From: Frankia alni ACN14a
GTDB lineage: Bacteria > Actinomycetota > Actinomycetes > Frankiales > Frankiaceae
Direction: 5' to 3'
Assembly (NCBI RefSeq): GCF_000058485.1
Contig: NC_008278.1
Coordinates: forward strand, 800,962 to 864,961
DNA: 64,000 nt
In this document: piece by piece, positions 1,290 through 61,315 of the stretch
How positions within the stretch are numbered: the first letter of the stretch is position 1
Layout of the letters: each line of letters starts with the position of its first letter
Position numbers and translations under genes: made by a program
The notes under the pieces: model-generated
The model's input: only the letters and a program-made list of their open reading frames with translations
Database searches by the model: none
What the model was told of the DNA's origin: nothing

Positions 1290-2477
1290 ATGTGGGTGGA
1301 CGCGAAATCGGCGGGTCGGGATGAGCGGCCGTGGCCCTGGCCCGAGCCGGCGGCGAGCGGGCAGGTGGATGCGGCCCGCGGCGGGGATGCGGCCGGCGTC
1401 GGGGATGCGGCCCGCGGCGGGGATGCGGCCGGCGTCGGGGATGCGGCCGGCGTCGGGGATGCGGCTCGTGGTGCTGATTCAGGCCGTGGGGCGGATTCAG
1501 GCCGTGGTGCTGATTCAGGCCGTGGTGCTGATTCAGGCCGTGGTGCTGATTCAGGCCGTGGTGCTGATTCAGGCCGTGGTGCGGATGCGGCTCACCGGGC
1601 GGATGCAGCTCGAGGTGCGGGGGCGGCTCGTGGGGCGGGGGTGGCCTTCGTTCTCGGCGGGGGTGGCATCCTCGGTGCGAGCGAGGTCGGCATGCTCGCC
1701 GCCCTGTTCGACGCCGACATCCTGCCCGACCTGGTGGTAGGCACCTCCGTCGGCGCGATCAACGGGGCCGCGGTGGCGGCCGAACCCGCGCCCGCGACGA
1801 TCGACCGGCTGACCGATCTGTGGTCGCAGCTTGGCGTCTCCGACGTGTTCGCGGGGGGCCCGGCCCGGCGGCTGGCCACCGTCGTCCAGCACGGTCACCT
1901 GCACTCCAACGCCCCGCTGCGCGCGCTGCTGCGCACGCACCTGCCGGCCGGGCCGATCGAGGACCTGCCGGTGCGGTTCCAGTGTGTCGCGGCGAGCATC
2001 GAACGGGCCGCTGCGCACTGGTTCGACCGCGGACCGCTCGTCGAGGCGGTGCTGGCCTCCTGCGCGGTTCCGGCGCTGCTGCCGCCGGTGCGCATCGGGG
2101 AGGAGCACTTCATCGACGGCGGGATCGTCGACAGCAACCCCGTCGGACGGGCGGTGGAGCTTGGGGCACACACGGTCTACGTCCTGCACGTCGGCCGGAT
2201 CGAACGGCCGCTACGGCCGCCGCGCTGGCCCTGGGAGGCCGGTCTGGTCGCCTTCGAGATCGCCCGCCGGCGCGGCTTCACCGAGGCGATGGCCCGGCTT
2301 CCCAGCGGGGTCGCCGTCCACGTGCTGCCGGTCGGGGAGCGCGGCGCCCCGCTGGTGCCGCTGCGCTACCGCTCCACCTCGGGCCTGAACCGGCGCATCC
2401 AGCAGGCCCGGCAGGCCACCGCGGCCTACCTCGACCTCACCGCCGGCGACCGTACCCGGTCGCTGGATGTGCTCTGA
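1290..2477 (+). CDS. Patatin-like phospholipase with repetitive N-terminus
   Basis: A 395-residue frame. Residues 118-320 are a patatin domain: oxyanion loop FVLGGGGILGASE, nucleophile elbow GTSVGAI (catalytic Ser) and the catalytic Asp in FIDGGIVDSNP. The family hydrolyses acyl esters of (phospho)lipids through a Ser-Asp dyad. The first ~117 residues are low-complexity, built from fourteen 18-bp repeats encoding GDAARG/GDAAGV and GADSGR. GTG 1641, right before the domain, is a credible alternative start, in which case the repeats would be leader DNA. A PlsC-type acyltransferase follows after 17 nt, so a joint role in removing and re-adding acyl chains is plausible. Confidence 0.85.
   Translation: MWVDAKSAGRDERPWPWPEPAASGQVDAARGGDAAGVGDAARGGDAAGVGDAAGVGDAARGADSGRGADSGRGADSGRGADSGRGADSGRGADSGRGADAAHRADAARGAGAARGAGVAFVLGGGGILGASEVGMLAALFDADILPDLVVGTSVGAINGAAVAAEPAPATIDRLTDLWSQLGVSDVFAGGPARRLATVVQHGHLHSNAPLRALLRTHLPAGPIEDLPVRFQCVAASIERAAAHWFDRGPLVEAVLASCAVPALLPPVRIGEEHFIDGGIVDSNPVGRAVELGAHTVYVLHVGRIERPLRPPRWPWEAGLVAFEIARRRGFTEAMARLPSGVAVHVLPVGERGAPLVPLRYRSTSGLNRRIQQARQATAAYLDLTAGDRTRSLDVL
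1368..1619 (+). repeat. Minisatellite, 14 units of 18 bp
   Basis: GAT recurs exactly every 18 bp from 1368 to 1602. The first six units follow GATGCGGCCCGCGGCGGG or its GGCGTC variant, the next six follow GATTCAGGCCGTGGTGCT, and the last two are degenerate. In the patatin frame each unit is six codons. Confidence 0.95.
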
Positions 2478-2494
2478 CCTGGAGGGCTGACGCC

Positions 2495-3745
2495 GTGGGC
2501 GTTCCACCGTGGGCGATCCGCCGGTTCCTGGTCGACCCGCTGTTCGTGCCGCTGGCGGCGGCGCTGGCCCTGCTCGCCGTCGCCGTCGCCGCGCTCGGCC
2601 TGCTGGCCGCTCCGGTGGACCGCCGGCTGCGGGTGCCGCGCGCGGCCCTGCTCGTCGCGATCTACCTGACCGCCGAGATGGTGCTGATCGTCGCCATGTT
2701 CGGGCTGTGGCTGGCCCGGCCGGCCCTCGACGGGCGTTGGGAGGCCGCCCACCTGTGGCTGCTGCGCCGCACGCTCGCCGTGCTGGTCGCGGCCGCCCGG
2801 CGGCTCGTCGGGCTGCGCCTGGAGGTCACCGAGCCGCCCGTGGGGACGGTCGACGCCGGTTCGGGGCCCGTCCTCGTGCTCAGCCGGCACGCCGGGCCGG
2901 GGGACTCCTTCGTGCTCATCCACCTGCTGCTCAACCGTTACCACCGGACCCCACGGGTGGTGCTGATCAATCGGCTCCAGCTCGATCCGGCGATCGACAT
3001 CCTGCTCGGCCGGCTCGGCGCCTGCTTCCTGCGCAACGACGGCTCGGACGACCATGCTGCCGCTCGGATCGGCGACCTCGCCAACAGCCTGACCGCCGGT
3101 GAGGCGCTGGTGATCTTCCCGGAGGGGGCGAACTTCACCCCGTCACGCCGCCGGCGGCTGATCGCCCGGCTGCGTGCCCGCGGCCAGTGGGACCGGGCGG
3201 CGATCGCGGAGGATCTTGACGCCGTGCTGCCGCCGCGACCGGCCGGGGTGCTCGCCGCACTCGCCACCGGCCGCATCGCCGCCACGATGATCGTGGCGCA
3301 CGCCGGCCTGGACGAGCTCAGCGCGCCCGGCGAGGTCTGGCAGGCCCTGCCGTTCGCGTCGCCGCTGCTGCTGCGCTGGTGGTGGGTGCCGGCGGCGGAG
3401 ATCCCGGGCCCCGAGCGGGCCAGGCGGCAGTGGCTGACGATGCACTGGGCAGTGGTGAACGCCTGGATCGGCGCTCAGCGCGCCGTAAGCCTCAGCGATG
3501 GTGGCGGTGGCGTTGCCGTCCGAGGCGGCGGCATTGTCGGCGATGGTGTCGGCGGTGGCGGTGGCGGTGGCGGTGGCAATGGCGGCGACGGCGTTGTCGG
3601 CGATGGTGTCGTCCGTGGTGGTGGTGGCGATGGTGGCGGCGGTGGTGGTGGCGTTGGTGTTGTCAGCGGCGGTGGTGTCGGCGCGGCCCAGCCAGCGGCG
3701 GGCGACCCGCCGTCGCCAACGGACCCGGCCAATCCCGTGCTGTAG
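2495..3745 (+). CDS. PlsC-type 1-acylglycerol-phosphate acyltransferase family protein
   Basis: Start GTG 2495 is set by GGAGGG at 2481-2486; the product has 416 residues. Two hydrophobic segments (about residues 10-35 and 48-70) precede the acyltransferase domain. Motif I is RHAGPGD (HX4D, with the catalytic His) and the acceptor-phosphate motif is FPEGANFTP. The family transfers acyl chains from acyl-CoA/ACP to lysophospholipids or similar glycerol acceptors at the membrane. The last ~90 residues are a Gly/Val-rich low-complexity tail encoded by GGT/GGC runs (3495-3690), not part of the enzyme fold. Its TAG (3743-3745) abuts an in-frame GTG of the next gene. Confidence 0.85.
   Translation: MGVPPWAIRRFLVDPLFVPLAAALALLAVAVAALGLLAAPVDRRLRVPRAALLVAIYLTAEMVLIVAMFGLWLARPALDGRWEAAHLWLLRRTLAVLVAAARRLVGLRLEVTEPPVGTVDAGSGPVLVLSRHAGPGDSFVLIHLLLNRYHRTPRVVLINRLQLDPAIDILLGRLGACFLRNDGSDDHAAARIGDLANSLTAGEALVIFPEGANFTPSRRRRLIARLRARGQWDRAAIAEDLDAVLPPRPAGVLAALATGRIAATMIVAHAGLDELSAPGEVWQALPFASPLLLRWWWVPAAEIPGPERARRQWLTMHWAVVNAWIGAQRAVSLSDGGGGVAVRGGGIVGDGVGGGGGGGGGNGGDGVVGDGVVRGGGGDGGGGGGGVGVVSGGGVGAAQPAAGDPPSPTDPANPVL
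3495..3690 (+). repeat. GGT/GGC-rich degenerate simple repeat
   Basis: Imperfect runs of GGTGGC, GTCGGCGATGGTGTC and GGTGGTGGC encode the glycine-rich tail of the acyltransferase. Two copies of GTCGGCGATGGTGTC stand about 60 bp apart. No single clean period was found. Confidence 0.75.
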
Positions 3746-5296: not shown

Positions 5297-5304
5297 CAAG
5301 GGGT

Positions 5305-6607: not shown

Positions 6608-6692
6608 CGTTTCAGGCTCCTACTTTTCCGATGTCGGTCCCGATGGGCGGTCAGTGGACGGGGACGGCGGTCAGCCGATGGGGATGAGCGGT

Positions 6693-7178
6693 TCAGTCGA
6701 TGGGGCGGGCAAAGGTGCCGCCGACGAAGCAGAGCATGGCGCAGACGATGCCGAGCACCGAGGCGACCATGGCCTCGCGCGCCCCCTGCTGTTCGTCGCC
6801 GGAAAAGACCATGGTCAGCACGAGGGTGCCGACGCCGACCACGGCGCCGACGGCGCCGAGCATGAAGCGGCGGGCGATCGTCTCCCGCGGCGGCAGGGTG
6901 GACAACGCGTCGATCGGAGCGATGCGGCCGGCCCGAGCACGGTTGCCCACCCGGCGCCGGATGTCGCGCAGCCGGAAGGTGTTGCCGGTGATGAAGAAGC
7001 TGAGCGCGGTCACGATCATCGATCCGGTGACCGAGACCTTCGCGAACGGGGACGACAGGGTCAACCAGACCCAGATCTCCAGTACCGCGAGCATCACCAG
7101 GCAGCCGGTGATCACGACCGTCGAGCGCATCAGTGCCGGGCTGAAGTGCTGGTCCTCGGGCTCGTGCAGGACGCCCAT
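6693..7178 (-). CDS. Four-TM hypothetical membrane protein
   Basis: 161 residues from ATG 7178, which has GAGGAG about 9 nt upstream. Four hydrophobic segments are visible: about 16-40, 48-70, 104-126 and 136-157. A short cytoplasmic-type basic stretch (RLRDIRRRVGNRARAG) lies in the middle. The frame is open upstream to GTG 7460, overlapping the end of the preceding lipoprotein gene by 14 nt; that extension is a Thr/Ser/Pro-rich, lower-GC3 stretch and is probably untranslated leader, though a disordered N-terminus cannot be excluded. No family recognised. 85 nt separate it from the coiled-coil membrane protein downstream. Confidence 0.65.
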   Translation of the reverse strand: MGVLHEPEDQHFSPALMRSTVVITGCLVMLAVLEIWVWLTLSSPFAKVSVTGSMIVTALSFFITGNTFRLRDIRRRVGNRARAGRIAPIDALSTLPPRETIARRFMLGAVGAVVGVGTLVLTMVFSGDEQQGAREAMVASVLGIVCAMLCFVGGTFARPID

Positions 7179-7446: not shown

Positions 7447-8499
7447 CTAGCTGCAGTCACTGCTGATCCGTCGACACAGTTCGCCCTTGAGGTACCGGGC
7501 GAGATCCTGCTGCGGCCGATCCGCCGCGCCCTCGTTGACCCCGAGGAACCGAACCTTGTCGTTGCCCACCGTGGTGATCTGCTGGGTCTCGAAGCACCGC
7601 TTGACCAGCGCCTCGGCGATGGACGCGGACGCCTTCTTGCCGTCGACGTTGAGGCAGTCGGAGTCCTGACCGGTGCCGAGCAGGTCGCTCCAGACGAGAA
7701 CGGTCACGTCGGTGACCTTCACGTCCGGTGTGGACCGGACGGTGTTGAGCTCGTCGTTGATGCCGGCGAGCAGGCCCGTGGCACTGCCCTTCGCGCTGAC
7801 CCGCTCGGTCTGGACGACGTGGTCGATCTCCGTGCCGAGGGCCTTGGCGGCGGCGACCCGGTCCTTCTCCTCGCGCCGGTTGTTGTTCCGTTTGATCTGG
7901 AACATCCGGTCACCGTGGAAGCAGTCCGAGTACGTCATGGCCGTGCCGCCGCTGGCGACGAGCCGGATGTAGGCGCCGTCCTTCAGCGCTGTGTCGAGAT
8001 AGGGCTGGACCCGGGTCGCGACGCGCTGCGCGGTGGCGGCCGAGTTGTCGGTCACGTCGAGCAGCACCAGCAGCAGCGGCGCGCCGGCCGAGGGCGTGGA
8101 CTCCTGGTACTTGGAGCAGTCGAGCGGACCGTCCGCCTTGGACGTGCCGAGCAGGCCGCCGGCGTCACAGGCAGCGAGCATCGGCGTCGCCAGCATGGCC
8201 GCAGCCACCAGCCCGGCCAGTCGGCTGTGCAGGCGGCGGCCCCGGCCCCGGCGTCGGTCCTGGCTCTGGCCGCCCTGGCCCGGACGTCGGTCCTGGCCAG
8301 GGTCCTGGCCAGGACGTCGGTCCTGGCCCTGGCCCGGATGGTCCTGGCCTCGGTCCTGGGTCCGGCCTCGGTCCTGGGTCCGGCGTCGGTCCTGGGTCCG
8401 GCGTCGGTCCTGGGTCCGGCGTCGGGCTGCGGGCTCACCCGTTCCGGCCGCGCCCGGAGGCAGGGGCACCGGCGGACCGGCGGAAACGTCGCACGTCAT
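7447..8499 (-). CDS. VWA-like substrate-binding lipoprotein
   Basis: 350 residues. The start ATG 8499 overlaps the TGA of the OmpA-like gene by 4 bp (ATGA), implying coupled translation. Residues 25-75 are Arg/Gln/Asp-rich repeats (RRTQDR). A lipoprotein signal follows (hydrophobic core, then LAAC as lipobox). The exported part has a Rossmann/VWA-like layout: strand LLLVLLDVTDNS (a MIDAS-like D-x-T-x-S), strand AYIRLVASGG and strand VTVLVWSDLLGTG. The unusually long region before the lipobox suggests the true start may lie inside the repeats. VWA assignment is by pattern only. Likely partner of the OmpA lipoprotein at the cell envelope. Confidence 0.7.
   Translation of the reverse strand: MTCDVSAGPPVPLPPGAAGTGEPAARRRTQDRRRTQDRRRTQDRGRTQDRGQDHPGQGQDRRPGQDPGQDRRPGQGGQSQDRRRGRGRRLHSRLAGLVAAAMLATPMLAACDAGGLLGTSKADGPLDCSKYQESTPSAGAPLLLVLLDVTDNSAATAQRVATRVQPYLDTALKDGAYIRLVASGGTAMTYSDCFHGDRMFQIKRNNNRREEKDRVAAAKALGTEIDHVVQTERVSAKGSATGLLAGINDELNTVRSTPDVKVTDVTVLVWSDLLGTGQDSDCLNVDGKKASASIAEALVKRCFETQQITTVGNDKVRFLGVNEGAADRPQQDLARYLKGELCRRISSDCS
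8351..8422 (-). repeat. Minisatellite, 4 units of 18 bp plus degenerate flank
   Basis: CGGTCC recurs every 18 bp (8351, 8369, 8387, 8405) in units of CGGTCCTGGGTCCGGCGT. Degenerate related units extend left to about 8255. Encodes the RRTQDR hexapeptides of the lipoprotein. Confidence 0.9.
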
Positions 8500-9304: not shown

Positions 9305-9461
9305 CCCGGGTTCGTCGCCGCCGCCGAGATCGGCGGCGGCTATCGATCAGTAGGGGGTGCGACCCGCAGCGGGTGCCGGTCAGCAAGGGGTGCCGAGCGA
9401 TTGCGACTGCTCGGCAGTAGTGGGGCCGAGCAGTCGCGGGGCCGAGCAGTAGCGGGGCTGA

Positions 9462-9605
9462 TCAGTAGCGGGTGCCGGTGGTCGTGGTGGTGGAGGCGGT
9501 CCGGCTGCGACGGCGGCGCAGGCGGCGCAGCCCGCGGGCGGCGGAACGGTCCGCCTGGTTGACGTCGTGCCGAACCTCGTGTCGCATGCGGCGCAGAATC
9601 TTCAT
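9462..9605 (-). CDS. Small basic peptide, 47 residues
   Basis: ATG 9605 is preceded by a strong AGGGGAGG at a 7-nt spacing, and the frame ends at TGA 9462-9464. The product begins MKILRRMRHEVRHDV, is rich in Arg (about 14 of 47) and ends in a Ser/Thr stretch. It has no signal peptide or TM segment. A nucleic-acid-binding or ribosome-associated role is only a guess from charge. It stands alone, 120 nt beyond the methyltransferase stop on the same strand. Confidence 0.6.
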   Translation of the reverse strand: MKILRRMRHEVRHDVNQADRSAARGLRRLRRRRSRTASTTTTTGTRY

Positions 9606-9724: not shown

Positions 9725-10645
9725 CTAGCGGGCCGGCGGCCGGCTCGTGACAAAGATGGAGGTCGAGGGCACATACCCGCCGCGCACAGGCCCCCACTGC
9801 CCCCAGGTCCGCTCCTGGCCGGCCGGCCATTCCGGCTCGATGATGTCGTGCAGGATCAGTCCGGCCGCGACGATCTCCCGGACCCGGTCGCCGATCGTGC
9901 GATGCGTCTCCGTGTAAATCGCCTGGCCCTGTTCATCGTGCTCGGTGTAGGCGCGCCGGTCGAAGTAGCTGTGGAACACCCGCAGCCCGTTCTCGTCCGG
10001 ATCGTCCGGCAGGCACCACACGAACGGATGAGTCGTCGAGAACACCCAGCGCCCGCCGGGCCGCAGCACCCGGGCGACCTCGCGCATCACCGCCCCGCTG
10101 TCGGCCACGAACGGGACCGCGCCGAACGCGGAGCAGGCCACGTCGACGCTCTCGTCCGCGAACGGGAGCGCGACCGCGTCGGCCTGGACCAGCGCCACCT
10201 CGATGCCGGTGCGGGCCGCGTAGGCGCGGGCCTGGGCAAGCTGGCCGCCGGACAGGTCGAAGCCGACCACCCGGGCACCCTGACGCCGCAGCCACCGCGC
10301 GCACTGGGCGCCGCCGCATCCGACCTCCAGGACGGTGCGGCCGGCCACGTCCCCGAGCAGCCGGAGCTCGGACTCGCGCAGTCCCTCGGGGCTCCAGCAG
10401 AAGTCGCTGTCTCCGAGGAAGGCACCATGTTCGGCCTGGTAGTCAGCGGCCGCGTCGTCCCAGTAGATGCGGCTGGCCCGCCGGGCGGTCTCGGGATCAA
10501 TATCGAGGTACCCGTAGGCGGGTGGCTGCTCCTCGCCGTCCCCGCCGTCGATCGTGCCTGTGCTGTCGATCGTGCCTGTGCTGTCGATCGTGTCTGTGCT
10601 GTCGATCGTGCCGCTGGTCGCGGCGTCGTTTTCTGGGCTGCCCAC
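9725..10645 (-). CDS. Class I SAM-dependent methyltransferase
   Basis: 306 residues from GTG 10645 (no clear Shine-Dalgarno). Residues 1-40 are a disordered leader with TIDSTG repeats. The Rossmann methyltransferase core follows: motif I VLEVGCGGAQCARWL (SAM binding), motif II VVGFDLSGGQL, motif III ALVQADAVALPF and post-motif VLRPGGRWVFSTTHP. The C-terminal part (FHSYFDRRAY, HRTIGDRVREIVAAG) resembles the Methyltransf_11 proteins common in actinobacteria whose substrates are mostly unknown. It is transcribed divergently from an IclR-type regulator across a 303-nt gap that contains GGTCGGAGCGGTC direct repeats (10832-10875), so regulation by that protein is possible. Confidence 0.85.
   Translation of the reverse strand: MGSPENDAATSGTIDSTDTIDSTGTIDSTGTIDGGDGEEQPPAYGYLDIDPETARRASRIYWDDAAADYQAEHGAFLGDSDFCWSPEGLRESELRLLGDVAGRTVLEVGCGGAQCARWLRRQGARVVGFDLSGGQLAQARAYAARTGIEVALVQADAVALPFADESVDVACSAFGAVPFVADSGAVMREVARVLRPGGRWVFSTTHPFVWCLPDDPDENGLRVFHSYFDRRAYTEHDEQGQAIYTETHRTIGDRVREIVAAGLILHDIIEPEWPAGQERTWGQWGPVRGGYVPSTSIFVTSRPPAR
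10549..10620 (-). repeat. Minisatellite, 4 units of 18 bp
   Basis: CGATCG recurs at 10549, 10567, 10585 and 10603; unit CGATCGTGCCTGTGCTGT. Encodes the TIDSTG/TIDSTD hexapeptides near the methyltransferase N-terminus. Confidence 0.95.
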
Positions 10646-10948: not shown

Positions 10949-11995
10949 GTGGGCGTGAAGCCGTCCGGGTCCGCCGCCCGGGTCGGCCGCCTGCTGCGGT
11001 TCCTCGGCGGGCACGGCGAGACCGGTTACTCGCTCTCGGAGCTGGCCCGGGCCGTCGGCATCGACAAGAGCACCTGCCAGGCGATGCTGCTCGCCCTGGT
11101 CGAGCAGGGGTTCGTCCACCGCGACGACGGGCACCGCACGTATGCCCTGGGCCCCTCGGCGCTGGCGGTCGCCGCCGCAGACGGGGACCGGGCGCGGCTG
11201 GTGCGGCTGGCCCGTGCGGAGCTGGAATCGCTGACCGCGGACCTCGACCTCGAGACGTTCGCGACCACGACCTTCGCCGGCAGTCTGCTCGTCCTGGCAC
11301 GCGTCCCCCGCTCCGCCCTGTTCGGGTTGTCCATGCGGGTCGGCCAGACGCTGCCGTTACGCCCGCCGGTCGGCGCCGTGCACCTGGCCTGGGCGCCCCC
11401 TGCCGCCGTCGACGTCTGGCTCCCCGCCGCCGGCCCCACCCCTGCCTCTGGCTTCCTCGCCGACGTCACCCCCGAGACCTGCGCAGACACCGCCCCGGCG
11501 GGCGAGGCGGAGAGGGCGGCCGGGGCGGGCGGGGTGTCGGCGGGCGAGGTCCGGGCGGACGCGTTCGCGGCGGGCGTCGTGCCGGACCCCGCCTGGGCGG
11601 TGGAGCCGGCGTGCCGGCATCGGCGGGTCCTCGACGCAGTGCGCGCACGGGGCTACTCGGTGACGGCGGACGACGCGCTGCGTTGGCGGTTGCGAGACGT
11701 GGTCGACCAGGTCGCGGACGCCCCGGCCGACCCGGGCCCGCGTCGGGAGCGGGACGAGCTGCTGCGGACCCTCGCCGAGCGGGAATACGAGATTCTGGAT
11801 CCGGACGAGGCGAAGTCGTGGCCCGTGGGGGAGATCTGCGCGCCGGTGTTCGGTCGCGACGGTCGGGTCGCCGTGGCCGTCGGTCTGGTCGCCGCGCGAA
11901 CCCTGGACACGGCCGGGCGCGCGGCCATGGTCGACCGGCTGCTGCTCGCGTCGACCCGGCTCACGGCGCTGACCGGCGGCCGCCCGCCGGACTGA
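10949..11995 (+). CDS. IclR-family transcriptional regulator
   Basis: 348 residues from GTG 10949 (GTGAGG 8 nt upstream; GTG 10955 two codons later is an alternative). Residues 5-70 are a winged helix: VGRLLRFLGGHGETGYSLSELARAVGIDKST as helix-turn-helix, then FVHRDDGHRTYALGP as wing. The C-terminal IclR-type effector domain is recognisable (VGQTLPLRPPVGAVHLAW; GEICAPVFGRDGRVAVAVGL), with a 45-residue Ala/Gly-rich insertion around residues 175-215. Such regulators bind small aromatic or carboxylic effectors and often repress divergent genes. Here the divergent neighbour is the methyltransferase. Confidence 0.8.
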   Translation: MGVKPSGSAARVGRLLRFLGGHGETGYSLSELARAVGIDKSTCQAMLLALVEQGFVHRDDGHRTYALGPSALAVAAADGDRARLVRLARAELESLTADLDLETFATTTFAGSLLVLARVPRSALFGLSMRVGQTLPLRPPVGAVHLAWAPPAAVDVWLPAAGPTPASGFLADVTPETCADTAPAGEAERAAGAGGVSAGEVRADAFAAGVVPDPAWAVEPACRHRRVLDAVRARGYSVTADDALRWRLRDVVDQVADAPADPGPRRERDELLRTLAEREYEILDPDEAKSWPVGEICAPVFGRDGRVAVAVGLVAARTLDTAGRAAMVDRLLLASTRLTALTGGRPPD

Positions 11996-12033
11996 CGCCG
12001 GCCCCGCCGGACTGACGCCGGCTCCGGCGGTGG

Positions 12034-14256
12034 TCAGAGCTCGCTGTGGCTGACCGCCGCGCCGATCACGGCCCGGTCCTCGGCGATGGTGATCGGCGTG
12101 TAGACGACCGTGTCGGTTGCCTGCCGGTCGACGAGGCGTCCGCGGCGGCTCTCCCCGACCAGTCGGGCCCGGCCCTCCAGCGAGCCCACGCCGACCTCGT
12201 GGTCGGCTGGGCCGAACGGGCCGGTTCCGGCCAGCCCGGCCTGCTCGGGGGCCTCCGTTGCGTAGATCCGGACGATGGCGCCGGGCACGGTCGTCCACCG
12301 CAGCACGGTCCCGCCGAGCGTGGTGCGCGCCTCGAGGTCGAGCACCGGCCGCGGACGGGCGACGACCCTGACCACCACCTCCGCCGCCCCGGAGGGTGCC
12401 AGCGCGTCCGAGCTGTCCGACCCGGCCACCCAGACCCGGTAGCGGTAGACCGCGCCGGGCGCGGTGTCCTCGTCGAGGAAGTAGCCGGCGGTGCCGCGGA
12501 ACCGGCGCTTCGCCCCCGACAACGGCGAGGTCTCGGCGAACGTCCGCTCGATCATCACCTCGTCGCGTTCCGGCATGGGCCGCCAGGACAGCGCGACCGC
12601 GTTGTCGGACATGCTGGCCCGCAGCGCGGTGACCGGCGGCAGCAGCGTGCGGGTCGGCGTGCGGACGGGCGTCGAGCGCAGCCGGCCCGCGGCGCCGGTG
12701 ACCATCGCGACCACCTCGTGCCAGTGCGGGACGCCTCTGGGCGCCCCGGCGTCGAACAGCTCGGTGCCGGTGGTGATGCCCAGGCTGCGTTCGCGGCGGC
12801 CGTTCGGCGCGGACGGATCCGCCAGCACCCGCGACACCCGGTAGGACGCCCCCGGGGTGACCGACGGCGCCCAGCGCAGCAGCACTGCGCCGTCCTGCTC
12901 CACCGCGGTGAGCTCCGCCGGCGCCGCCGGGCGATCCATCGCCGGTTCTGCGGGCATCGCCGGTCCGGTTCCTATCGCCGGTTTGGTAGGCATCGCCGGT
13001 TCGGCTGCCATTGCCGGTTCGGTGGGCATCGCCGGTTCGGCTGCCATTGCCGGTTCGGTGGGCATCGCCGGTTCGGTGGGCCGGGGTAGCGCCTCCGCGT
13101 CGCCGGGATCCGGCGCGACGGCCGACGTCGCTCGTGGGCCGGCGACGCCGGGGGTGTCCGGCGGCTCGGGGAACCGCGTCGGGGGCAGACCGGGGGGTGG
13201 CTGGTGGCTGGTGCGGCCCGCCACCCGCGTCGCCTCGTCGCAGTCGTCGACACCGCCGGGCGGCCCGCCCGCGCCGGTGGGGCTCGCAGCGCGCAGCGAG
13301 CCGGGAGCCGCCGGGGCCTCCGGTAGCGAACCGGTGAACCGGCCCGGCGCCGCACTGCCTCCGCCGGGCGGCGCGGAATACCGCAGGTGCCAGGACAGGG
13401 CGTCCACGCGGCCCACCCCGGGCTGCGGCCGGGAGCGGGCGGCCTGCTCGAGCAGTTCCCGGGCCCGGGCCGGCGTCAACCGCTGGGCGGGATCCTTCGC
13501 CAGAAGGCCGTCGAGCACCGGGCCGAGGGCGCCGGCCCGCCGAGTCGGGGCGGGCGGGTGGAGCAGGATGGCGGCCAGCATCGCGCCGAAGCTGTCCCGC
13601 TCGAACGGCGGGTGCCCCTCCACGGCGTAGTACAGCGTGCCCCCCAGGCTGAACAGGTCCGCCTCGAAGGTCGCCGGCCGGTTGTCGAGCCGTTCCGGAG
13701 CCATGTAGAGGGGGGTTCCCAGCACGCCGGTGACCGTGAGCGTTGGATCGCCGTCGCCGGTGGCGATGCCGAAGTCGGTGAGCACGACCCGGCCGTCCGT
13801 CCCGATCAGCACGTTGGACGGCTTGACGTCGCGGTGGACGATGCCGTGATCGCGGGCGGCGACGAGCGCGTCGAGCATCGCGATCCCGATCCGGGCGACC
13901 TCGGCGCCGGGCAACGGCCCGTCGTCGCGCACGACCTCGAACAGGGAGCGGGACGGCACGAGCTCCATCACGATCCAGGGCAGGCCGTGTTCGAGGACGA
14001 CGTCGAGGATCGTGACGACGTGGGGATGGCCGCGCAGCTTGGCGGCGTGCCGCGCCTCGCGCAACGCCCGCTCGACCCGGTCCGCCCGTTCGGCGCCCGC
14101 GACACCGCCGGCGAACTCGATCTCCTTGAGCGCCGCCTCGGTCTCCAGGACGGAATCGAAGGCGCGCCAGACCGTCCCCATCGCACCCGCACCCAGACGC
14201 GCGACAAGTCGATATCGGCCCGCCACCACGCGGTTGCCTACCGGAACGGCAGCCAC
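12034..14256 (-). CDS. Serine/threonine protein kinase with C-terminal Fn3-like modules
   Basis: 740 residues from GTG 14256. Kinase domain at residues 14-275: glycine loop LGAGAMGTVWRA, catalytic Lys in AALKEI, catalytic loop HRDVKPSN, DFGIA and MAPERL. A ~170-residue Pro/Ala-rich linker follows, with eight 18-bp repeats (PTEPAM/AAEPAM). The C-terminal ~300 residues contain three Fn3-like beta segments (AVLLRWAPSVTPGASYRVSR; AVALSWRPMPERDEVMIERT; TVLRWTTVPGAIVRIY). No TM segment is seen, so it is probably a soluble Hanks-type kinase. A second kinase gene lies 193 nt downstream on the same strand; whether they form one operon is open. Confidence 0.9.
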   Translation of the reverse strand: MAAVPVGNRVVAGRYRLVARLGAGAMGTVWRAFDSVLETEAALKEIEFAGGVAGAERADRVERALREARHAAKLRGHPHVVTILDVVLEHGLPWIVMELVPSRSLFEVVRDDGPLPGAEVARIGIAMLDALVAARDHGIVHRDVKPSNVLIGTDGRVVLTDFGIATGDGDPTLTVTGVLGTPLYMAPERLDNRPATFEADLFSLGGTLYYAVEGHPPFERDSFGAMLAAILLHPPAPTRRAGALGPVLDGLLAKDPAQRLTPARARELLEQAARSRPQPGVGRVDALSWHLRYSAPPGGGSAAPGRFTGSLPEAPAAPGSLRAASPTGAGGPPGGVDDCDEATRVAGRTSHQPPPGLPPTRFPEPPDTPGVAGPRATSAVAPDPGDAEALPRPTEPAMPTEPAMAAEPAMPTEPAMAAEPAMPTKPAIGTGPAMPAEPAMDRPAAPAELTAVEQDGAVLLRWAPSVTPGASYRVSRVLADPSAPNGRRERSLGITTGTELFDAGAPRGVPHWHEVVAMVTGAAGRLRSTPVRTPTRTLLPPVTALRASMSDNAVALSWRPMPERDEVMIERTFAETSPLSGAKRRFRGTAGYFLDEDTAPGAVYRYRVWVAGSDSSDALAPSGAAEVVVRVVARPRPVLDLEARTTLGGTVLRWTTVPGAIVRIYATEAPEQAGLAGTGPFGPADHEVGVGSLEGRARLVGESRRGRLVDRQATDTVVYTPITIAEDRAVIGAAVSHSEL
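12941..13084 (-). repeat. Minisatellite, 8 units of 18 bp
   Basis: GCCGGT recurs every 18 bp from 12941 to 13067 (unit GCCGGTTCGGTGGGCATC, alternating with a GGCTGCCATT variant). Lies in the linker of the kinase. Confidence 0.93.
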
Positions 14257-14449: not shown

Positions 14450-16303
14450 TCAGGGCGCCGGGCGCAGCAGGGAGCGTCCGGCGTCGTCGGCGTCCTGCCC
14501 CGGCGCCCTCGGATCACGTGCCGGACCCGCGGCGGCCGGACCCGCGGCGGCCGGACCCGCGGCGGCCGGACCCGCGGCCGGGTCGGCGGCCAGCTCCGGG
14601 CGGGCGCCGGTGGTGGCCGGGCGGGGCGGCAGCATCGCGAACGCGCCGGTCGCGGCCACGACCAGGGCCACCGCCACGCACAGCAGCACCCGGCCGGGCT
14701 CGCCGACGTCCAGGGACCGGGCCAGCAGCACACCACCGCCGGACCCGACGAAGGCGGCCAGGACCGTGACCGCGGCACCGATCGCCCGGTTGCTCAGGAA
14801 CAGCAGCTGGGCGCAGACCGCCCCGGTGACGGTGGCGGCCGCGGGGCCGAGAACCGCGTGGCCCGCCCGGGCGGTGCCCGCCGCCCAGATCCCGACCGCG
14901 CCGACGAGCCCGCCGGCGGTGAGCAGCACAACCAGCATCCCGAGCGGCAAGGACGGCGGCCGGACCACCGTCGGCGCAGCCGGTGGGACGGGAAGATCAC
15001 CCTCCGCCCGCTCGTCGTCGGCGGCTCCGGCAGGGACCGGTGGTGGCAACGGAGCGGGTGGTGATGGGACCGGTGGCGGTGACGGGGTGGGTGGTGACGG
15101 GAGCGGTGGTGGCGACGGGGTGGGTCGCGATGGGGTGGGTCGCGGCGAGGTAGGTGATGGCGGGGTGGGTCGCGACGGGGTAGGTGATGGCGGGGTGGGT
15201 CGCGGCGGGGTGGGTCGCGACGGAGTGGGTGGTGGGGTTGGCGGCGGCCCGGGGGGCGCCAACCGGGTCACGTCGTGATCCTCGGGGACGGGTCCGCGAC
15301 TCTCGGGGTTGCGGTCGCGATTCTCGGCGTCCTGCGCGCCGGGCCCTCGGGGATCAGGTTTCGGCGTCTCGATCGTCAGGGGCGTGATCGGCGGGGGATC
15401 GATGATCGGCGGATCGGGCGGTGGGGGATCGGGCGGCGGGGGCGTGATCGTCGGCGGATCGGGCGGCGTTCTTTCGTCGCCGGGGGTCGCGGGCTGGGAG
15501 AACCGGCGGGAGAGCAGGCGGACGAGCTCGCCGGCCGCCGGGCGCCGGGCGGGATCCTTCGCCAGGCAGCGGGAGACCGCGTCGAGCAACCGGTCGGGGG
15601 TGCCGTCAAGATCCGGTTCGGCCGCCCCGATCCGCAGCGCGACGATCTCCTGGGTCTCACCGCGGAACGGGCGGCGCCCGGTCGCGGCGAACACCACGCA
15701 GCAGGCCCAGGCGAAGATGTCCGCGGCGGGGCCCGCGATCTGCCCGTCGAGCTGCTCGGGGGACATCCAGGCGATCGTGCCGACCAGCTCGCCGGCCTGG
15801 GTATAGCCGGTGTACTCGGCGGAGCGGGCGACGCCGAAGTCGATGACCTTCGGTCCCGTCCAGGACATCACGATGTTCGCCGGCTTCAGGTCGCGGTGCA
15901 CCACCCCGGCGTCGTGGATGGCCTCCAGCGCGGCCGCGAGCCCGATCGTGAGGTTGTCGAGATGCCGGTCGACGAGCGGCCCGTGCTCCAACACGGCGGC
16001 GTGCAACGTCGGACCCGGCACGTACTCCGTCGCCAGCCAGGGACGCGAGCCCTCCACCTCGGCATTGATCACTCTGGCGACGGTGCTGGCCTGGACGTGC
16101 CGCGCGGCTGTGACCTCCGACCGGAACCGCGCGCGGAACTCCGGATCGCTGGCGTACGCCTCGTGCGGCACCTTCACCGCGACCGGCCGATCCTCGTCCG
16201 CGAACCCGAGGTAGACGACGCCCATGCCGCCGGCGCCGATGCGGTAGTGCAGGCGGTAGGGCCCCATTATCCGGGGATCGGTGTCGGTCAGTGGTCTCAG
16301 CAC
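14450..16303 (-). CDS. Membrane-anchored serine/threonine protein kinase
   Basis: 617 residues from GTG 16303, with AGAGGA upstream. Kinase domain at about 15-270: IGAGGMGVVYLG, Lys in VAVKVP, HRDLKPAN, DFGVA, MSPEQL. Then a ~180-residue Pro/Thr-rich region (RPTPP/SPTPS repeats) and four hydrophobic segments between about 455 and 575 (for example LGMLVVLLTAGGLVGAVGIW). The tail carries GPAAA repeats. The family phosphorylates Ser/Thr of envelope and regulatory proteins; the output domain here is only membrane helices, so a ligand cannot be predicted. 77 nt separate it from the upstream TAXI receptor gene. Confidence 0.9.
   Translation of the reverse strand: MLRPLTDTDPRIMGPYRLHYRIGAGGMGVVYLGFADEDRPVAVKVPHEAYASDPEFRARFRSEVTAARHVQASTVARVINAEVEGSRPWLATEYVPGPTLHAAVLEHGPLVDRHLDNLTIGLAAALEAIHDAGVVHRDLKPANIVMSWTGPKVIDFGVARSAEYTGYTQAGELVGTIAWMSPEQLDGQIAGPAADIFAWACCVVFAATGRRPFRGETQEIVALRIGAAEPDLDGTPDRLLDAVSRCLAKDPARRPAAGELVRLLSRRFSQPATPGDERTPPDPPTITPPPPDPPPPDPPIIDPPPITPLTIETPKPDPRGPGAQDAENRDRNPESRGPVPEDHDVTRLAPPGPPPTPPPTPSRPTPPRPTPPSPTPSRPTPPSPTSPRPTPSRPTPSPPPLPSPPTPSPPPVPSPPAPLPPPVPAGAADDERAEGDLPVPPAAPTVVRPPSLPLGMLVVLLTAGGLVGAVGIWAAGTARAGHAVLGPAAATVTGAVCAQLLFLSNRAIGAAVTVLAAFVGSGGGVLLARSLDVGEPGRVLLCVAVALVVAATGAFAMLPPRPATTGARPELAADPAAGPAAAGPAAAGPAAAGPARDPRAPGQDADDAGRSLLRPAP
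14523..14582 (-). repeat. Minisatellite, 4 units of 15 bp
   Basis: GGACCC at 14523, 14538, 14553 and 14568; unit GGACCCGCGGCGGCC. Encodes GPAAA pentapeptides at the kinase C-terminus. Confidence 0.95.
15119..15238 (-). repeat. Minisatellite, 8 units of 15 bp
   Basis: GGTGGGT or GGTAGGT recurs every 15 bp from 15119 to 15224. Encodes the RPTPP/SPTPS pentapeptides of the kinase linker. Degenerate units continue to about 15060. Confidence 0.9.
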
Positions 16304-17544: not shown

Positions 17545-17727
17545 CGGGCGTCCTCCGCTCTGGACTGTTCGCCGCCGACAACCGTGGTCGCGGAATGCGG
17601 GAGATCGTAGAGGAAACCTCGTAGCGGGTTCCCGGCCGGGGCGGCGCGATTGTCCGTCCTTCGGTCAGCTTCTCGCCAAACCCTTCCCGGCGGCGATTCT
17701 TCTGCGTGCTCGGCTTGTCCGCTGGGC

Positions 17728-17817
17728 GACATCGGTGCGGTCGACATCGGTGCGGTCGACATCGGTGCGGTCGACATCGGTGCGGTCGGCGTCGGTGCGG
17801 TCGGCGTCGGTGCGGGC
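17728..17817. repeat. Intergenic minisatellite, 6 units of 15 bp
   Basis: Units of GACATCGGTGCGGTC (four copies, then two GGCGTCGGTGCGGTC) start every 15 bp at 17728-17803. Lies in the 288-nt gap between the GT-C-like gene and the TAXI gene, which otherwise shows no gene. Confidence 0.95.
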
Positions 17818-23559: not shown

Positions 23560-23591
23560 GGCCGCCGGAGAACTGACGCCGTCCCGAGGCC

Positions 23592-54442: not shown

Positions 54443-55317
54443 TACCCCTGCGACGTCACTACGGGTCACCGGCGTCCGGTCCCCCCGGGGGGCGGCGCCC
54501 CGGGCATCGGTCGACGCGCAGCTCGCCCTGACACTATCGGTTCCTTTCCGCCATGGACCGGTGGTTGCGCACCTACGACTACGCTCGCCCATGCTCCGGT
54601 GTCAACTGTCCTGGCCCGGTGCTCCCGGGCCGGAATAACATGGCTCGTTGTGCCACTTCACCGAAATCTGTTGCATCGACAACTCTGCTGGCGGGTCGAG
54701 GGGCACGGGGCGAAGTCGCGTATCGGCGGCCCGCGCCGGACCCGGTACGCCGGCGTCGGGCCGGCCGCCGTGGGCCTGCGGAGCATCCGGCCCCGGCGTC
54801 GATCGCCTTCGCTCTTCCGGAGTGGTCGGACGGACCCAGGCTATCGTCGGCCGCCACCATCGACCCGGGAATCACCGCCCGCGCAGGAATGCGGGTCCGG
54901 AATGACATCCGCCGCCGGCCGGCGGCAATTCGGTGTGCGTTGGTCGCGGCAGGTCGTCGCCGGTCGCGGCGGGTCGCGGCGGGGTCGCGGCGGCGTCGCG
55001 GCGGGGCGTGGCGCGCGGGGTCAGTGTTCGGTCGGTCGATCGACGGCGGCCGCGGCTCGCGAGGCGGTCACGCTCGATCGGAAACGCCTTGACCTGACGT
55101 TGGGTTGAGGCCGTAAGGTCGCCACGCGTCCATGGCGCGTCACCCGTCGTCAGGCGGGCTGTGCGACCGCCGTCCCGTCCTCCGCCACCCGGTTGTGGAT
55201 CACGGGGGTCGCCGCCCGTCGTGGCCGTCATGACGGTGGGGGGACCTGCTCGGTGTCCCCGCGACGGCAGCGGGACGCCCTGGTCGACCGGGTATCGCCG
55301 CTGCAGAGAGGGACCGC
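54443..55317. other. 875-nt intergenic region
   Basis: Open frames occur on both strands but none has a start signal or a recognisable product. 54950-55020 is a run of GTCGCGGCGGG-type imperfect repeats. The right end carries the MerR-type promoter of the ABC exporter (see next entry). Confidence 0.5.
55089..55119 (+). promoter_or_regulatory. MerR-type promoter of the ABC exporter operon
   Basis: TTGACC (-35, 55089-55094) and TAAGGT (-10, 55114-55119) are separated by exactly 19 bp, the elongated spacing typical of MerR-family-activated promoters. The spacer contains an imperfect dyad (CCTGAC ... GTTGAGG) like SoxR/TipA operators. The exporter ATG is about 200 nt downstream. No merR-like gene is in the window. 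Confidence 0.6.
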
Positions 55318-59455: not shown

Positions 59456-59680
59456 CGGTCTCTCCCGACTGCGTGCGCGCTCGCTGTGCGTGACGAATCG
59501 GAGCGGCGTCCGCTCCCATCCTCCGGAGATGGCCGGGCGGCGGCAAGGGACCGGCGGGGGGCACCTTCGGGCCATTCGGGCCCCGATCGCCGGCACGACG
59601 GTGTACGAGCCGGAGTGGGGGAATGACGCCTGCGCGCCGAATGTCGGTCTCCGGTCGATTACCGCAGGTCAGGAGGATTC

Positions 59681-61315
59681 ATGGGCCGCCTTCAGGGTTC
59701 GTACCGACCATCGTTGGGGACGCCCGTCGGGCCGGTTCCCGACGATCAGCCGATCGACGTCACGGTCGTGCTGCGCCCCACCGCCGCGGATGACTTCCGC
59801 GCCGACCCGGACGACGTCGCCGCGGTGCGCGCGTTCGCCGGGCGGGCCGGACTGGACGTCGCCGAGGTCGACGAGCCCGCCCGCACCGTCCGCCTGCGGG
59901 GCCCGGCCGCCGCCGCGCGCACCGCCTTCGACACCCCGCTGGCCCTCTACGACTCCGGCGGTCGGGCCATCCGTGGCCGCGAGGGCGACCTCGGCCTGCC
60001 CGACGAGCTCGACGACCGCGTCGTGGCCGTGCTCGGCCTCGACGAGCGTCCCGCCGCCCGGCCACGCTTCCAGCCCGCCGCCTCCGCGCGGCAGGGCCTG
60101 ACCGCCCTGCAGGTCGCGCGGGCCTACGACTTCCCCGCCGCGACCGGCGAGGGCCAGACCATCGCGATCATTGAGCTCGGCGGCGGGTTCGGCCAGGCCG
60201 ACCTCGACACCTACTTCGGCGGCCTGGACCTGCCGACCCCGGCGGTGTCCGCCGTCGGCGTGCAGGGCGCCGCCAACGTCCCCGGCGGTGATCCGGACGG
60301 CGCCGACGGCGAGGTGCTGCTCGACATCGAGGTCGCCGGGGCGGTCGCCCCCGGCGCCGCCCAGGTGGTCTACTTCGCGCCGAACACCGACGCCGGCTTC
60401 CTCGCGGCGATCAACGCGGCCGCCGCCGCCACCCCTCGCCCGGCGGCGATCAGTATCAGCTGGGGCGGCCCCGAGTCGTCCTGGACCGCGCAGGCGATGC
60501 GCGCCTACGACCAGGCATTCGCCGCCGCCCGCGCCGCCGGCATCACCGTCCTCGCGGCCGCCGGGGACGCCGGCGCCGACGACGCCACCGACCGGCTCGT
60601 CGCAGACTTCCCGGCCGGCTCGCCGAACGTGATCGCCTGCGGCGGAACGAAGCTGACCCTCGACGCCGCCGGCGCCCGCGCCAGCGAGGTGGTGTGGAAC
60701 GAGGCCGCCGACTCGGCGACCGGCGGCGGCTACTCGGCGACGTTCACCCGGCCGGCCTGGCAGCCGGCCGCCGTCGGCCGCTACCGCGGCCTGCCCGACA
60801 TCAGCGGCAACGCCGATCCGCAGACGGGCTACCGCGTCGTCGTGGACGGCCAGCCGACGGTCGTCGGCGGTACCTCCGCCGTCGCGCCGCTGCTGGCCGG
60901 ACTCGTCGCCCGCCTCGCGCAGCTCACCGGCGCCCCCGTCGCGGATCTCGCCGCCGTCGCCTACGCCAATCCCGCAGCCTTCACCGACATCACCGCCGGC
61001 GACAACCAGGGCTACCCGGCCCGCTCCGGGTGGGACCCGGCGTCGGGCCTCGGCAGCCCCGTCGGCACGAAGCTCCTCACCGCGGTCGGCGGCCCGACCC
61101 CGCCGCCGACCACTCCGCCCCCCACGACTCCGCCCCCCACGACTCCGCCGCCGACCATCCCGCCGCCGACCACCCCGCCGACGCAGACGGTGGACGCCGC
61201 GGACAGGGCGCTGTGGTCCGCCGTCGCGACCTGGGCGGGCGGCACCCACACGGGGGCAAACGCCAGGGCCGCAAAGGCGGTCCGTGCCTGGGCCCAGGCC
61301 AAGAGCCTCGCCTGA
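59681..61315 (+). CDS. S53 family serine-carboxyl peptidase (kumamolisin-like)
   Basis: 544 residues from ATG 59681 with GGAGG upstream. N-terminal pro-domain (about 1-140; VVLRPTAADDFRADP), then the catalytic domain: DGEVLLDIEVAGAVAPGA with the catalytic Glu and Asp, AAAGDAGADDATD (oxyanion Asp) and GGTSAVAPLLAG with the nucleophile Ser. The Ca-site region near the end reads DITAGDNQGYPARSGWDPASGLGSP. A Pro/Thr linker (PPPTT repeats) and a ~45-residue helical tail follow. There is no signal peptide, although the family is usually secreted. Confidence 0.92.
   Translation: MGRLQGSYRPSLGTPVGPVPDDQPIDVTVVLRPTAADDFRADPDDVAAVRAFAGRAGLDVAEVDEPARTVRLRGPAAAARTAFDTPLALYDSGGRAIRGREGDLGLPDELDDRVVAVLGLDERPAARPRFQPAASARQGLTALQVARAYDFPAATGEGQTIAIIELGGGFGQADLDTYFGGLDLPTPAVSAVGVQGAANVPGGDPDGADGEVLLDIEVAGAVAPGAAQVVYFAPNTDAGFLAAINAAAAATPRPAAISISWGGPESSWTAQAMRAYDQAFAAARAAGITVLAAAGDAGADDATDRLVADFPAGSPNVIACGGTKLTLDAAGARASEVVWNEAADSATGGGYSATFTRPAWQPAAVGRYRGLPDISGNADPQTGYRVVVDGQPTVVGGTSAVAPLLAGLVARLAQLTGAPVADLAAVAYANPAAFTDITAGDNQGYPARSGWDPASGLGSPVGTKLLTAVGGPTPPPTTPPPTTPPPTTPPPTIPPPTTPPTQTVDAADRALWSAVATWAGGTHTGANARAAKAVRAWAQAKSLA
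61101..61175 (+). repeat. Minisatellite, 5 units of 15 bp
   Basis: Units like ACGACTCCGCCCCCC encode PPPTT pentapeptides in the linker of the S53 peptidase. Confidence 0.85.

What the first reader, a model, noticed from the sequence alone, without database searches (positions are those of the whole stretch)
1368..61175. Proliferation of frame-preserving minisatellites across the window
At least 19 tandem arrays lie in 64 kb. Inside genes every array has a unit of 15 or 18 bp (patatin, VWA lipoprotein, methyltransferase, both kinases, hypothetical at 20069, PAP2, FAD oxidoreductase, receiver protein, PfkB, the two-TM paralogues, S53 peptidase). Unit sequences are unrelated, so this is a process, not a spread element. 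Units of 5 or 6 codons keep the frame when copy number changes. Arrays fall at termini, linkers or loops. This looks like a mutational mechanism with length preference (replication slippage or repair) plus selection on frame.
Basis: partly seen in the sequence, partly recalled or inferred. Interest (0 to 1): 0.75.

Follow-up and report, generated by a model that had tools for sequence, protein, structure and literature searches.

The report
Frankia's frame-filtered minisatellite factory
This soil bacterium's genome holds many more short head-to-tail repeats of about 13 to 19 letters than most related bacteria sampled, and inside genes almost only those that keep the reading frame are found, which makes it a natural case for studying how proteins gain new flexible segments.

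Summary
The window (a Frankia chromosome of 7,497,934 bp; F. alni ACN14a by recall) has 31 tandem arrays scoring >=80; a shuffled 1.2 Mb genome sample has none. That sample has 206 arrays with 13-21 bp units (17.2 per 100 kb) against 33 in 78 control loci (2.0 per 100 kb); 22-45 bp units are not enriched. "15 or 18" is a frame filter on a broader mutation: noncoding exact duplications are flat over 13-18 bp and drop from 19 up, while 191 of 193 coding arrays but 44 of 83 noncoding ones are multiples of three. Window arrays differ in length from orthologous loci of sister species in 51 of 54 comparisons (control segments 53 of 691), often by whole units and down to a single copy in the complete genome G004. 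Isolated two-copy duplications carry terminal direct repeats (mean 4.7 nt, null 0.86). Best reading: direct-repeat-mediated duplication (slippage or unprocessed flaps, ABA to ABABA) at a raised rate, tolerated in genes if in frame. The cause of the raised rate was not found. Similar repeats are known from Borgs; similar duplications from yeast rad27 mutants.

The parts
1367..1645 (+). two adjacent 18-bp arrays (5.5 and 6.7 copies) N-terminal to the patatin domain of ORF 1290-2477 (uncertain 5' part)
3524..3683 (+). imperfect array, unit 60 (also read as 12, 15 or 27), C-terminal to an acyltransferase domain
6646..6705 (.). 20-bp array, 2.9 copies, between two called minus-strand genes; 6.0 units long in G004, 2.0 in G011 and G010, 2.8 in G003
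8239..8425 (.). 18-bp array (10.6 copies) just upstream of the called gene 7447-8208; 0.7-1.4 units in G004, G011, G010 and G003
9414..9477 (.). intergenic 16-bp array, 3.9 copies
10547..10612 (-). 18-bp array, 3.7 copies, N-terminus of a methyltransferase; same length in G011, 2.7-3.2 units in G004, G010, G003
11983..12030 (.). 20-bp duplication, 2.4 copies, at the convergent ends of two genes; 1.4-1.5 units in G011 and G004, 2.7 in G003
12936..13081 (-). 18-bp array, 8.1 copies, C-terminal to a Ser/Thr kinase domain
14520..14578 (-). 15-bp array, 3.9 copies, 100% matches, C-terminus of the second kinase; 0.9-1.1 units in G004, G003 and G009, 2.5 in G011
15033..15230 (-). 15-bp array, 9.8 copies, C-terminal to the kinase domain of the second kinase
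17727..17815 (.). 15-bp array, 5.9 copies, outside called genes; 4.8 units long in G011, 11.7 in G009, 0.9 in G004, G010 and G003. In G004 a 5-nt direct repeat (GGGCG) recurs at exactly 15 bp
20360..20452 (-). 18-bp array, 5.2 copies, hypothetical protein; 1.2-1.3 units in G004, G010 and G003, 2.2 in G011, 4.0 in G009
21101..21206 (+). 18-bp array, 4.9 copies, N-terminal to a thioesterase domain
22394..22518 (.). intergenic 19-bp array, 6.6 copies, 97% matches; no array found by TRF at the site in G004, G011, G010 and G003, 2.1 copies in G009
23590..23700 (.). intergenic 19-bp array, 4.8 copies
27917..28082 (+). two 15-bp arrays (7.3 and 2.9 copies), C-terminal to a PAP2 domain
29292..29387 (+). 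18-bp array, 5.2 copies, after the main stretch of an amine oxidase domain match
33319..33416 (-). 18-bp array, 5.4 copies, C-terminal tail of a receiver-domain protein; 7.4 units in G011, 3.4 in G009, 1.4 in G004 and G010
34376..34570 (-). 18-bp array (6.7 copies) and 30-bp duplication after the first stretch of a PfkB domain match (loop position inferred)
35146..35275 (.). 15-bp array, 8.7 copies, mostly downstream of the stop of the PAS-GGDEF gene
37818..37903 (-). 15-bp array in the PAS-GGDEF protein, between its first PAS and first GGDEF region
42718..43154 (+). 9-bp and 72-bp arrays in ORF 42048-43808 (not called as a gene by my caller)
43442..43702 (+). 18-bp arrays (3.2 and 7.2 copies)
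44688..44950 (+). two 18-bp arrays (6.2 and 5.5 copies) in ORF 44002-45378
54942..55013 (.). 10/11-bp array outside called genes
61094..61182 (+). 15-bp array, 5.6 copies, C-terminal to the pro-kumamolisin and subtilase matches of a peptidase; same length in G011

Best explanation
The chromosome keeps gaining head-to-tail duplications of roughly 13-19 bp, largely at sites where a short direct repeat happens to recur at that spacing (ABA becomes ABABA), by strand slippage or by re-annealing and ligation of an unprocessed lagging-strand flap. Once two copies exist, further slippage or unequal exchange grows, shrinks and homogenises them. Outside genes any length survives; inside genes almost only 15, 18 and some 21 survive, mostly in tails and linkers, where they are largely tolerated. 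The size preference seems shared with other actinobacteria; the rate is raised roughly seven- to ninefold in F. alni. Shown: excess, size window, frame filter, length variation in unit steps, single-copy orthologues, terminal microhomology in many cases. Inferred: that single copy is ancestral, the replication step, the flap, tolerance in genes. Unknown: why the rate is high.
For: Excess confined to 13-21 bp units: 17.2 against 2.0 per 100 kb (2.4 in GC>=0.725 controls: 10 in 411,070 bp), while 22-45 bp units are 3.3 against 3.1. Noncoding exact duplications in G000 by period: 13:9, 14:9, 15:8, 16:10, 17:10, 18:8, 19:3, 20:1, 21:3, then 7 duplications between 25 and 57 bp. G000 coding 127 of 128 multiples of three, noncoding 22 of 41; pooled Frankia 191 of 193 and 44 of 83, Fisher p 9e-22, orthologous arrays of sister species counted more than once. 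Isolated two-copy duplications of 13-22 bp in the alni clade: mean terminal match 4.67 nt, 42 of 76 with >=4 nt; the composition-based null gives 3%. Single-copy orthologues: a direct repeat of >=5 nt at exactly the unit spacing in 16 of 39 array entries, 7.9% at spacings 1-5 nt off; counting each site once 12 of 32, null 7.5%, binomial p 2e-6. Length differences are exact unit multiples in 80 of 182 pairs, permutation mean 40, maximum 56 in 2000; one pair per site, 23.0 of 50 on average against 10.1. Against the one-contig genome G004 alone, 11 of 11 comparable window arrays differ and 8 have <=1.6 units there. At 6 of the 12 window loci with an orthologue in the G004/G010/G003 clade, every available member has <=1.6 units (clade). 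Same signature, including a 16-bp unit with an 8-bp direct repeat at 1-4 copies, in yeast rad27 deletion strains (PMC5677150, passages).
Against: 20 of 32 distinct single-copy sites show no direct repeat of >=5 nt at the unit spacing, and leaving out sites already partly duplicated (run >=8) the count is 7 of 27 against 7.2%; 22 of 76 isolated duplications have 0-1 nt of terminal match. So some births may not use microhomology, or mutation has hidden it. A leading-strand G bias of noncoding arrays in G000 (31 of 41, paired p 0.002) is not clear in coding arrays (71 of 128, p 0.41) nor in relatives (9 of 18 noncoding, 13 of 15 in the uncertain class, together p 0.09), so the link to replication is weak. 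No significant hairpin excess. No tested repair gene explains the rate. Tolerance in genes rests on a home-made gene caller: exact 15- and 18-bp duplications are 62 and 50 in 1.018 Mb coding and 8 and 8 in 0.171 Mb noncoding, about equal, but 12 and 14 more lie in about 0.075 Mb of uncertain sequence, and if that counts as noncoding the coding density is lower. Arrays were picked because they are long in one genome, which favours shorter orthologues.
Confidence: 0.68

Rival explanations
1. Adaptive generator: arrays are kept because length variation in protein tails and linkers is useful (contingency-like tuning), and selection, not mutation, sets their number.
For: 116 of 899 called genes in the own sample carry an array against 44 of 1346 in controls (the caller was trained on this genome); arrays sit mostly in tails and linkers; the Borg authors argue for function (PMC9879509 abstract).
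Against: Noncoding DNA carries at least as many per base (24.0 against 12.6 per 100 kb for 13-21 bp units) in the same size window; the host genes in the window are of unrelated kinds; in-gene units almost never break frame (2 of 193), so on-off switching is not the use.
Confidence: 0.12
2. Paired-nick or staggered-break repair: two nicks 13-19 bp apart are opened, filled in and joined by end joining, giving duplications of a set size without needing homology.
For: The drop above 18 bp is what a limited nick spacing would give; 22 of 76 isolated duplications have 0-1 nt of terminal match; Ku is present in G000.
Against: The excess of terminal matches (42 of 76 with >=4 nt, null 3%) and of direct repeats at single-copy sites (12 of 32, null 7.5%); Ku is in 34 of 40 genomes sampled from the class, among them G044, G067 and G041, whose five sampled 20-kb stretches hold two arrays of 13-21 bp.
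Confidence: 0.14
3. Artefact of extreme GC content, codon bias or short-read assembly.
For: GC is 73% and most relatives are drafts; some draft contigs end at arrays.
Against: GC>=0.725 controls have 10 such arrays in 411,070 bp; a shuffle has none; the one-contig genomes G000 and G004 have similar densities (17.2 and 16.5 per 100 kb) and differ at all 11 and 8 arrays compared in the two directions.
Confidence: 0.03
4. A dispersing repeat element or shared motif seeds the arrays.
For: A slight excess of similar unit pairs (37 of 6780 at >=75% identity against 19 after shuffling).
Against: No unit pair reaches 90% identity; several single-copy orthologous sites already hold one unit of the local array.
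Confidence: 0.02

Closest known systems
Tandem repeats of archaeal Borg elements (Schoelmerich et al. 2023, PMC9879509; seen: abstract, sections 9 and 10, part 1 of 2 of section 6, passages)
   Same: Pervasive arrays with virtually unique units, all in-gene units divisible by three and 14-38% outside, flanking partial repeats, presence or absence between close relatives, examples of 18, 20 and 21 nt.
   Different: Borgs are extrachromosomal and A-rich, and the survey counted perfect repeats; here it is a 73% GC bacterial chromosome with a narrow 13-19 bp spectrum. By the Borg criterion (perfect, >=50 nt, >=3 units) the G000 sample has 27.5 per Mb and the controls 6.1; the Borg table averages 46 per 828,655 bp.
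Direct-repeat-mediated insertions in yeast rad27 (FEN1) deletion strains (PMC5677150, passages only)
   Same: ABA to ABABA insertions at short direct repeats; one locus with a 16-bp unit, an 8-bp direct repeat and 1-4 copies among strains.
   Different: Laboratory mutant; sizes range wider (B 1-91 bp, A 1-21 bp). Frankia keeps genes with the 5'-nuclease domain.
Surveys of prokaryotic satellites (PMC6749651 and PMC8161180, passages only)
   Same: Units that are multiples of three in genes; constant unit size with variable sequence (20-21 or 52 nt) in some bacteria.
   Different: The Bacillus 20-21 and 52 nt classes are in general noncoding and form species-specific sequence families; here units are nearly unrelated and the window is 13-19 bp. 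The Table 1 rows I saw put the highest bacterium at 23 per Mb (Burkholderia pseudomallei chrII) and Streptomyces coelicolor at 4.2; with TRF (>=4 copies, 10-200 bp, >=80% match) I get 65.8 per Mb in the G000 sample and 9.0 in 26 Streptomyces loci, so methods differ about twofold. 'Frankia' occurs 0 times in the main text of PMC6749651.
Repeat counts in Frankia genomes, S5 Table of PMC4447401 (methods and table legend seen as passages; the table itself not seen)
   Same: Tandem repeats of ACN14a, CcI3, EAN1pec and Dg1 were counted with MUMmer (matches >=20 bases, >=50 bases in total per unit).
   Different: The two main-text occurrences of 'tandem repeats' are in the methods and that legend; unit sizes, frame or turnover are not discussed in the passages seen.
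Bacterial VNTR/MLVA minisatellites
   Same: Copy number varies between relatives.
   Different: Usually far fewer loci are used per genome (recalled); scaling the sample gives about 1,290 arrays of 13-21 bp for this genome (206 in 1.2 Mb).

Membership tests
Variable minisatellite (VNTR) | Tandem units of about 10-100 bp | tested here: met
Variable minisatellite (VNTR) | Copy number varies between relatives in unit steps | tested here: met
   51 of 54 comparisons from 19 window arrays differ; 80 of 182 differences exact multiples, permutation mean 40
Variable minisatellite (VNTR) | Variation among strains of one species | not testable with these tools
   one genome per species held; the closest pair G003-G010 (97.3%, both drafts) differs at 4 of 5 arrays, all by unit multiples
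Borg-like frame-filtered tandem repeats | In-gene units divisible by three, noncoding ones not restricted | tested here: met
   191 of 193 against 44 of 83
Borg-like frame-filtered tandem repeats | A-enriched units | tested here: not met
   units average 76% GC, the sample 72.9%
FEN1/rad27-type direct-repeat insertions | Single-copy form is ABA with A a short direct repeat | tested here: inconclusive
   enriched (12 of 32 sites against 7.5%) but not at most sites
FEN1/rad27-type direct-repeat insertions | Loss of the 5' flap nuclease | tested here: not met
   PF02739 in 35 of 35 family genomes, two hits in G000; activity not testable here
Sequence-family satellites (Bacillus 20-21/52 nt type) | Arrays share related unit sequences within a genome | tested here: not met
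   (15- and 18-bp units only)

The most novel reading that the evidence does not exclude
The F. alni clade has a heritable change in lagging-strand or repair processing that lets 13-19 nt flaps or loops be ligated in, so the whole chromosome produces in-frame 5- and 6-codon insertions at a high rate with little selection against them: a natural FEN1-mutant-like state that continuously feeds new flexible segments into about one gene in eight.
Probability: 0.3. Interest if true: 0.75.

Novelty: new variant of a known kind. Interest (0 to 1): 0.55.

Why it matters
It separates mutation from selection for short in-frame insertions: the noncoding spectrum gives the mutational input, the coding spectrum the filtered output, and single-copy orthologues show the likely ancestral sites. 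It offers typing markers for Frankia and a testable bacterial counterpart of flap-dependent duplication.

Tried and rejected
Rejected or unsupported: common unit motif or spread element; hairpin-forming units (two-unit DNA folding energy -6.01 against -5.74 for local windows, paired difference -0.26 +- 0.22, n=232); a few chromosomal hot spots (13-21 bp arrays per 20 kb: mean 3.43, variance 5.05, mildly overdispersed).

Repair-gene absence as the cause, judged by eye against the densities: NucS in 27 of 29 order genomes (no hit in G010 and G013), Ku in 34 of 40 class genomes, PF02739 in 35 of 35 family genomes, with one to four hits each, exonuclease VII large subunit in 29 of 29, SbcC_Walker_B in 27 of 29 (no hit in G005 and G015). 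None obviously tracks array density; no formal test was made.

A pairwise indel spectrum between species was too noisy at 5-9% divergence and was not used. A leading-strand G bias seen in G000 noncoding arrays was not clearly repeated in relatives and is kept only as a hint.

Literature: searches listed no paper whose title or abstract start describes this in Frankia (one search listed 25 of 39 papers); only an open-licence library was searched. A count of tandem repeats in ACN14a exists in a supplementary table of PMC4447401 that I could not see. Papers seen: PMC9879509 abstract, sections 9 and 10, part 1 of section 6, passages; PMC5677150, PMC6749651, PMC8161180, PMC4670077, PMC4447401 and PMC2770080 passages only; the others as listings.

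Full report
What it is. The window is G000:C1:800962-864961 of a one-contig genome of 7,497,934 bp. The closest named relative of a window protein in the genome collection is Frankia tisae at 90%. G002 (5,433,628 bp) has the length given for Frankia sp. CcI3 in PMC4670077. G010 is probably F. tisae, from a shared contig length of 16,570.

Observation. TRF gives 60 merged arrays of score >=50 and 31 of best score >=80 in 64 kb. In-gene units are 15 or 18 bp with a few other multiples of three. In a systematic sample of 60 stretches of 20 kb there are 286 arrays >=80 (23.8 per 100 kb); one dinucleotide shuffle gives none; 78 control loci give 137 in 1,641,292 bp (8.3 per 100 kb), and the 18 with GC>=0.725 give 48 in 411,070 bp (11.7 per 100 kb). 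The controls are all taken around one transporter gene, and two of the 78 titles are not actinobacterial (a Deinococcales and a Firmicutes MAG). A small independent control, five 20-kb stretches from three other genomes of the class, had 6 arrays, two with 13-21 bp units. The window is dense even for this genome: about 9.7 arrays per 20 kb, where the highest of the 60 sampled stretches have 10.

The excess is size-specific and lineage-specific. For 13-21 bp units per 100 kb: G000 17.2, G004 16.5 (spread sample of 200 kb), the syntenic blocks of G004 25.8, G011 35.7, G009 37.9, G003 18.9 and G010 9.2; elsewhere in the genus CcI3 8.0, G005 15.1, G006 13.3, G007 13.2, G008 6.7, G012 5.4 and G001 only 2.6; in other genera of the family g4 9.7, G027 3.7, G024 2.5, g5 2.1, and none in two small samples (g3, g2); controls 2.0. 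For 22-45 bp units: 3.3 in G000 against 3.1 in controls. Most samples other than G000 and the controls are under 100 kb, and draft genomes may lose arrays. Counts per locus in G000 and controls differ (Mann-Whitney p 1e-18). 116 of 899 called genes in the sample carry an array, against 44 of 1346 in controls; the gene caller is my own, was trained on this genome, and 899 genes in 1.2 Mb suggests that it misses some.

Mutation spectrum and frame filter. Counting exact duplications (two full copies or more), noncoding DNA of G000 shows a plateau from 13 to 18 bp (9, 9, 8, 10, 10, 8), then 3, 1, 3 at 19, 20, 21 and 7 between 25 and 57; coding DNA shows 15 (62), 18 (50), 21 (5), 36 (3) and a single 13 among units of 13 bp or more. 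Units of 8-12 bp also occur; short ones must include chance matches. In G000 127 of 128 coding arrays of 13-21 bp are multiples of three, against 22 of 41 noncoding; pooled over Frankia, 191 of 193 against 44 of 83 (Fisher p 9e-22), with orthologous arrays of sister species counted more than once. Some noncoding 15s and 18s may sit in genes that my caller missed. Per base, exact 15- and 18-bp duplications are about as frequent in called genes (62 and 50 in 1.018 Mb) as in sure noncoding DNA (8 and 8 in 0.171 Mb); a further 12 and 14 lie in about 0.075 Mb of uncertain 5' sequence, where the start call itself is upset by arrays. So in-frame arrays are tolerated, but strict neutrality is not shown. 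In controls, 15 of the 21 noncoding exact duplications with units of 13 bp or more are 14-18 bp long, so the size preference looks general and the rate special.

Births and turnover. Six genomes of the syntenic region hold 118 array entries (10-45 bp units, score >=70), 80 of which have an anchored orthologue, in 213 pairs. For the 19 G000 arrays among them, 51 of 54 comparisons differ by >=5 bp; random non-array segments differ in 53 of 691. Because arrays were chosen for being long in one genome, some of this is ascertainment. Of all pairs with 13-21 bp units, 182 differ, 80 by exact unit multiples (permutation mean 40, maximum 56 of 2000); with one pair per site, 23.0 of 50 sites against 10.1. 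For 39 of 70 such entries at least one relative has 1.6 units or fewer. A tree of 10 gene segments (10,605 columns; two of 12 segments were dropped for missing species) separates G000, G011 and G009 from G004, G010 and G003 with support 1.0. Of 19 window loci, 12 have an orthologue in the second clade, and at 6 every available member has 1.6 units or fewer; at 17727 the lengths are 5.9, 4.8 and 11.7 units in G000, G011 and G009 and 0.9 in each of the other three. Against G004 alone, a single contig, 11 of 11 comparable G000 arrays differ and 8 are single-copy there; of 8 G004 arrays all differ in G000 and 2 are single-copy. The closest pair, G003 and G010 at 97.3%, differs at 4 of 5 comparable arrays, all by exact multiples, but both are drafts. 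That the single copy is the ancestral state is an inference; contraction is not excluded at each locus.

Mechanism. Isolated two-copy duplications of 13-22 bp (n=76 in the alni clade) extend beyond two copies by 4.67 nt on average, null 0.86; 42 of 76 reach 4 nt or more where the null gives 3% (the null assumes a 0.30 chance of a match per base). Single-copy orthologues have a direct repeat of >=5 nt at exactly the unit spacing in 16 of 39 entries, against 7.9% at spacings 1-5 nt off; counting each site once, 12 of 32 against 7.5% (p 2e-6), and without sites that are already partly duplicated 7 of 27 against 7.2%. This is the ABA to ABABA signature reported for yeast lacking the flap nuclease Rad27 (PMC5677150), and also fits ordinary slippage at short direct repeats. 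I favour slippage or flap misprocessing, with paired-nick repair as the main mechanistic rival for the homology-free cases. No tested repair gene is missing in a way that obviously tracks the rate.

Consequence for proteins. In the window, arrays mostly sit beside folded domains: 15 of 16 arrays scoring >=80 in 12 Pfam-annotated ORFs lie outside the best domain stretch (worked out by hand); two weaker arrays lie inside a DUF222 match. Examples are A(D/G)(P/R)FT(A/E/Q/D) hexapeptides in a PfkB-family kinase and the ADRRHE/ADGGYE tail of a receiver protein. Disorder or flexibility was not tested.

Known or new. Frame-filtered, unrelated, fast-turning arrays are described for Borgs, and in-gene multiples of three for bacteria in general. 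A tandem-repeat count for ACN14a exists in a supplementary table that I could not see (PMC4447401). In the eight searches listed I saw no description of the pattern in Frankia. The points that seem new are the chromosome-wide scale in a bacterium, the narrow 13-19 bp spectrum read from noncoding DNA, and the view of likely births from single-copy sites. I therefore call it a new variant of a known kind.

Noticed in passing
G000:C1:4035007-4035624: The second 5'-nuclease (PF02739) match in G000 spans 618 bp for 162 model positions, so about 130 bp of extra sequence lies inside it; in G004 and G009 the match is split in two. Arrays may have landed in a flap-nuclease-like gene itself.
   Followed up: no
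G000:C1:4545487-4545750: The strongest SbcC_Walker_B match in G000 lies in an open frame of only 336 aa, while the best matches of most relatives lie in frames of about 900-1700 aa; possibly a truncated large SMC-like gene.
   Followed up: no
G000 noncoding arrays: 31 of 41 noncoding arrays are G-rich on the inferred leading strand (p 0.002 against flanks); in relatives 9 of 18 noncoding and 13 of 15 uncertain ones (together p 0.09).
   Followed up: partly
L005 (Actinoplanes sp. DH11): The only one of 78 control loci with as many as 4 arrays of 13-21 bp, in 23.5 kb; a second lineage with a raised rate is possible.
   Followed up: no
window 3746-5296: DUF222-HNH protein gene with several diverged homologous places in the relatives searched.
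   Followed up: no
whole window: The window has about twice the array density of the genome sample (48.4 against 23.8 per 100 kb) and equals the densest 20-kb stretches sampled.
   Followed up: partly
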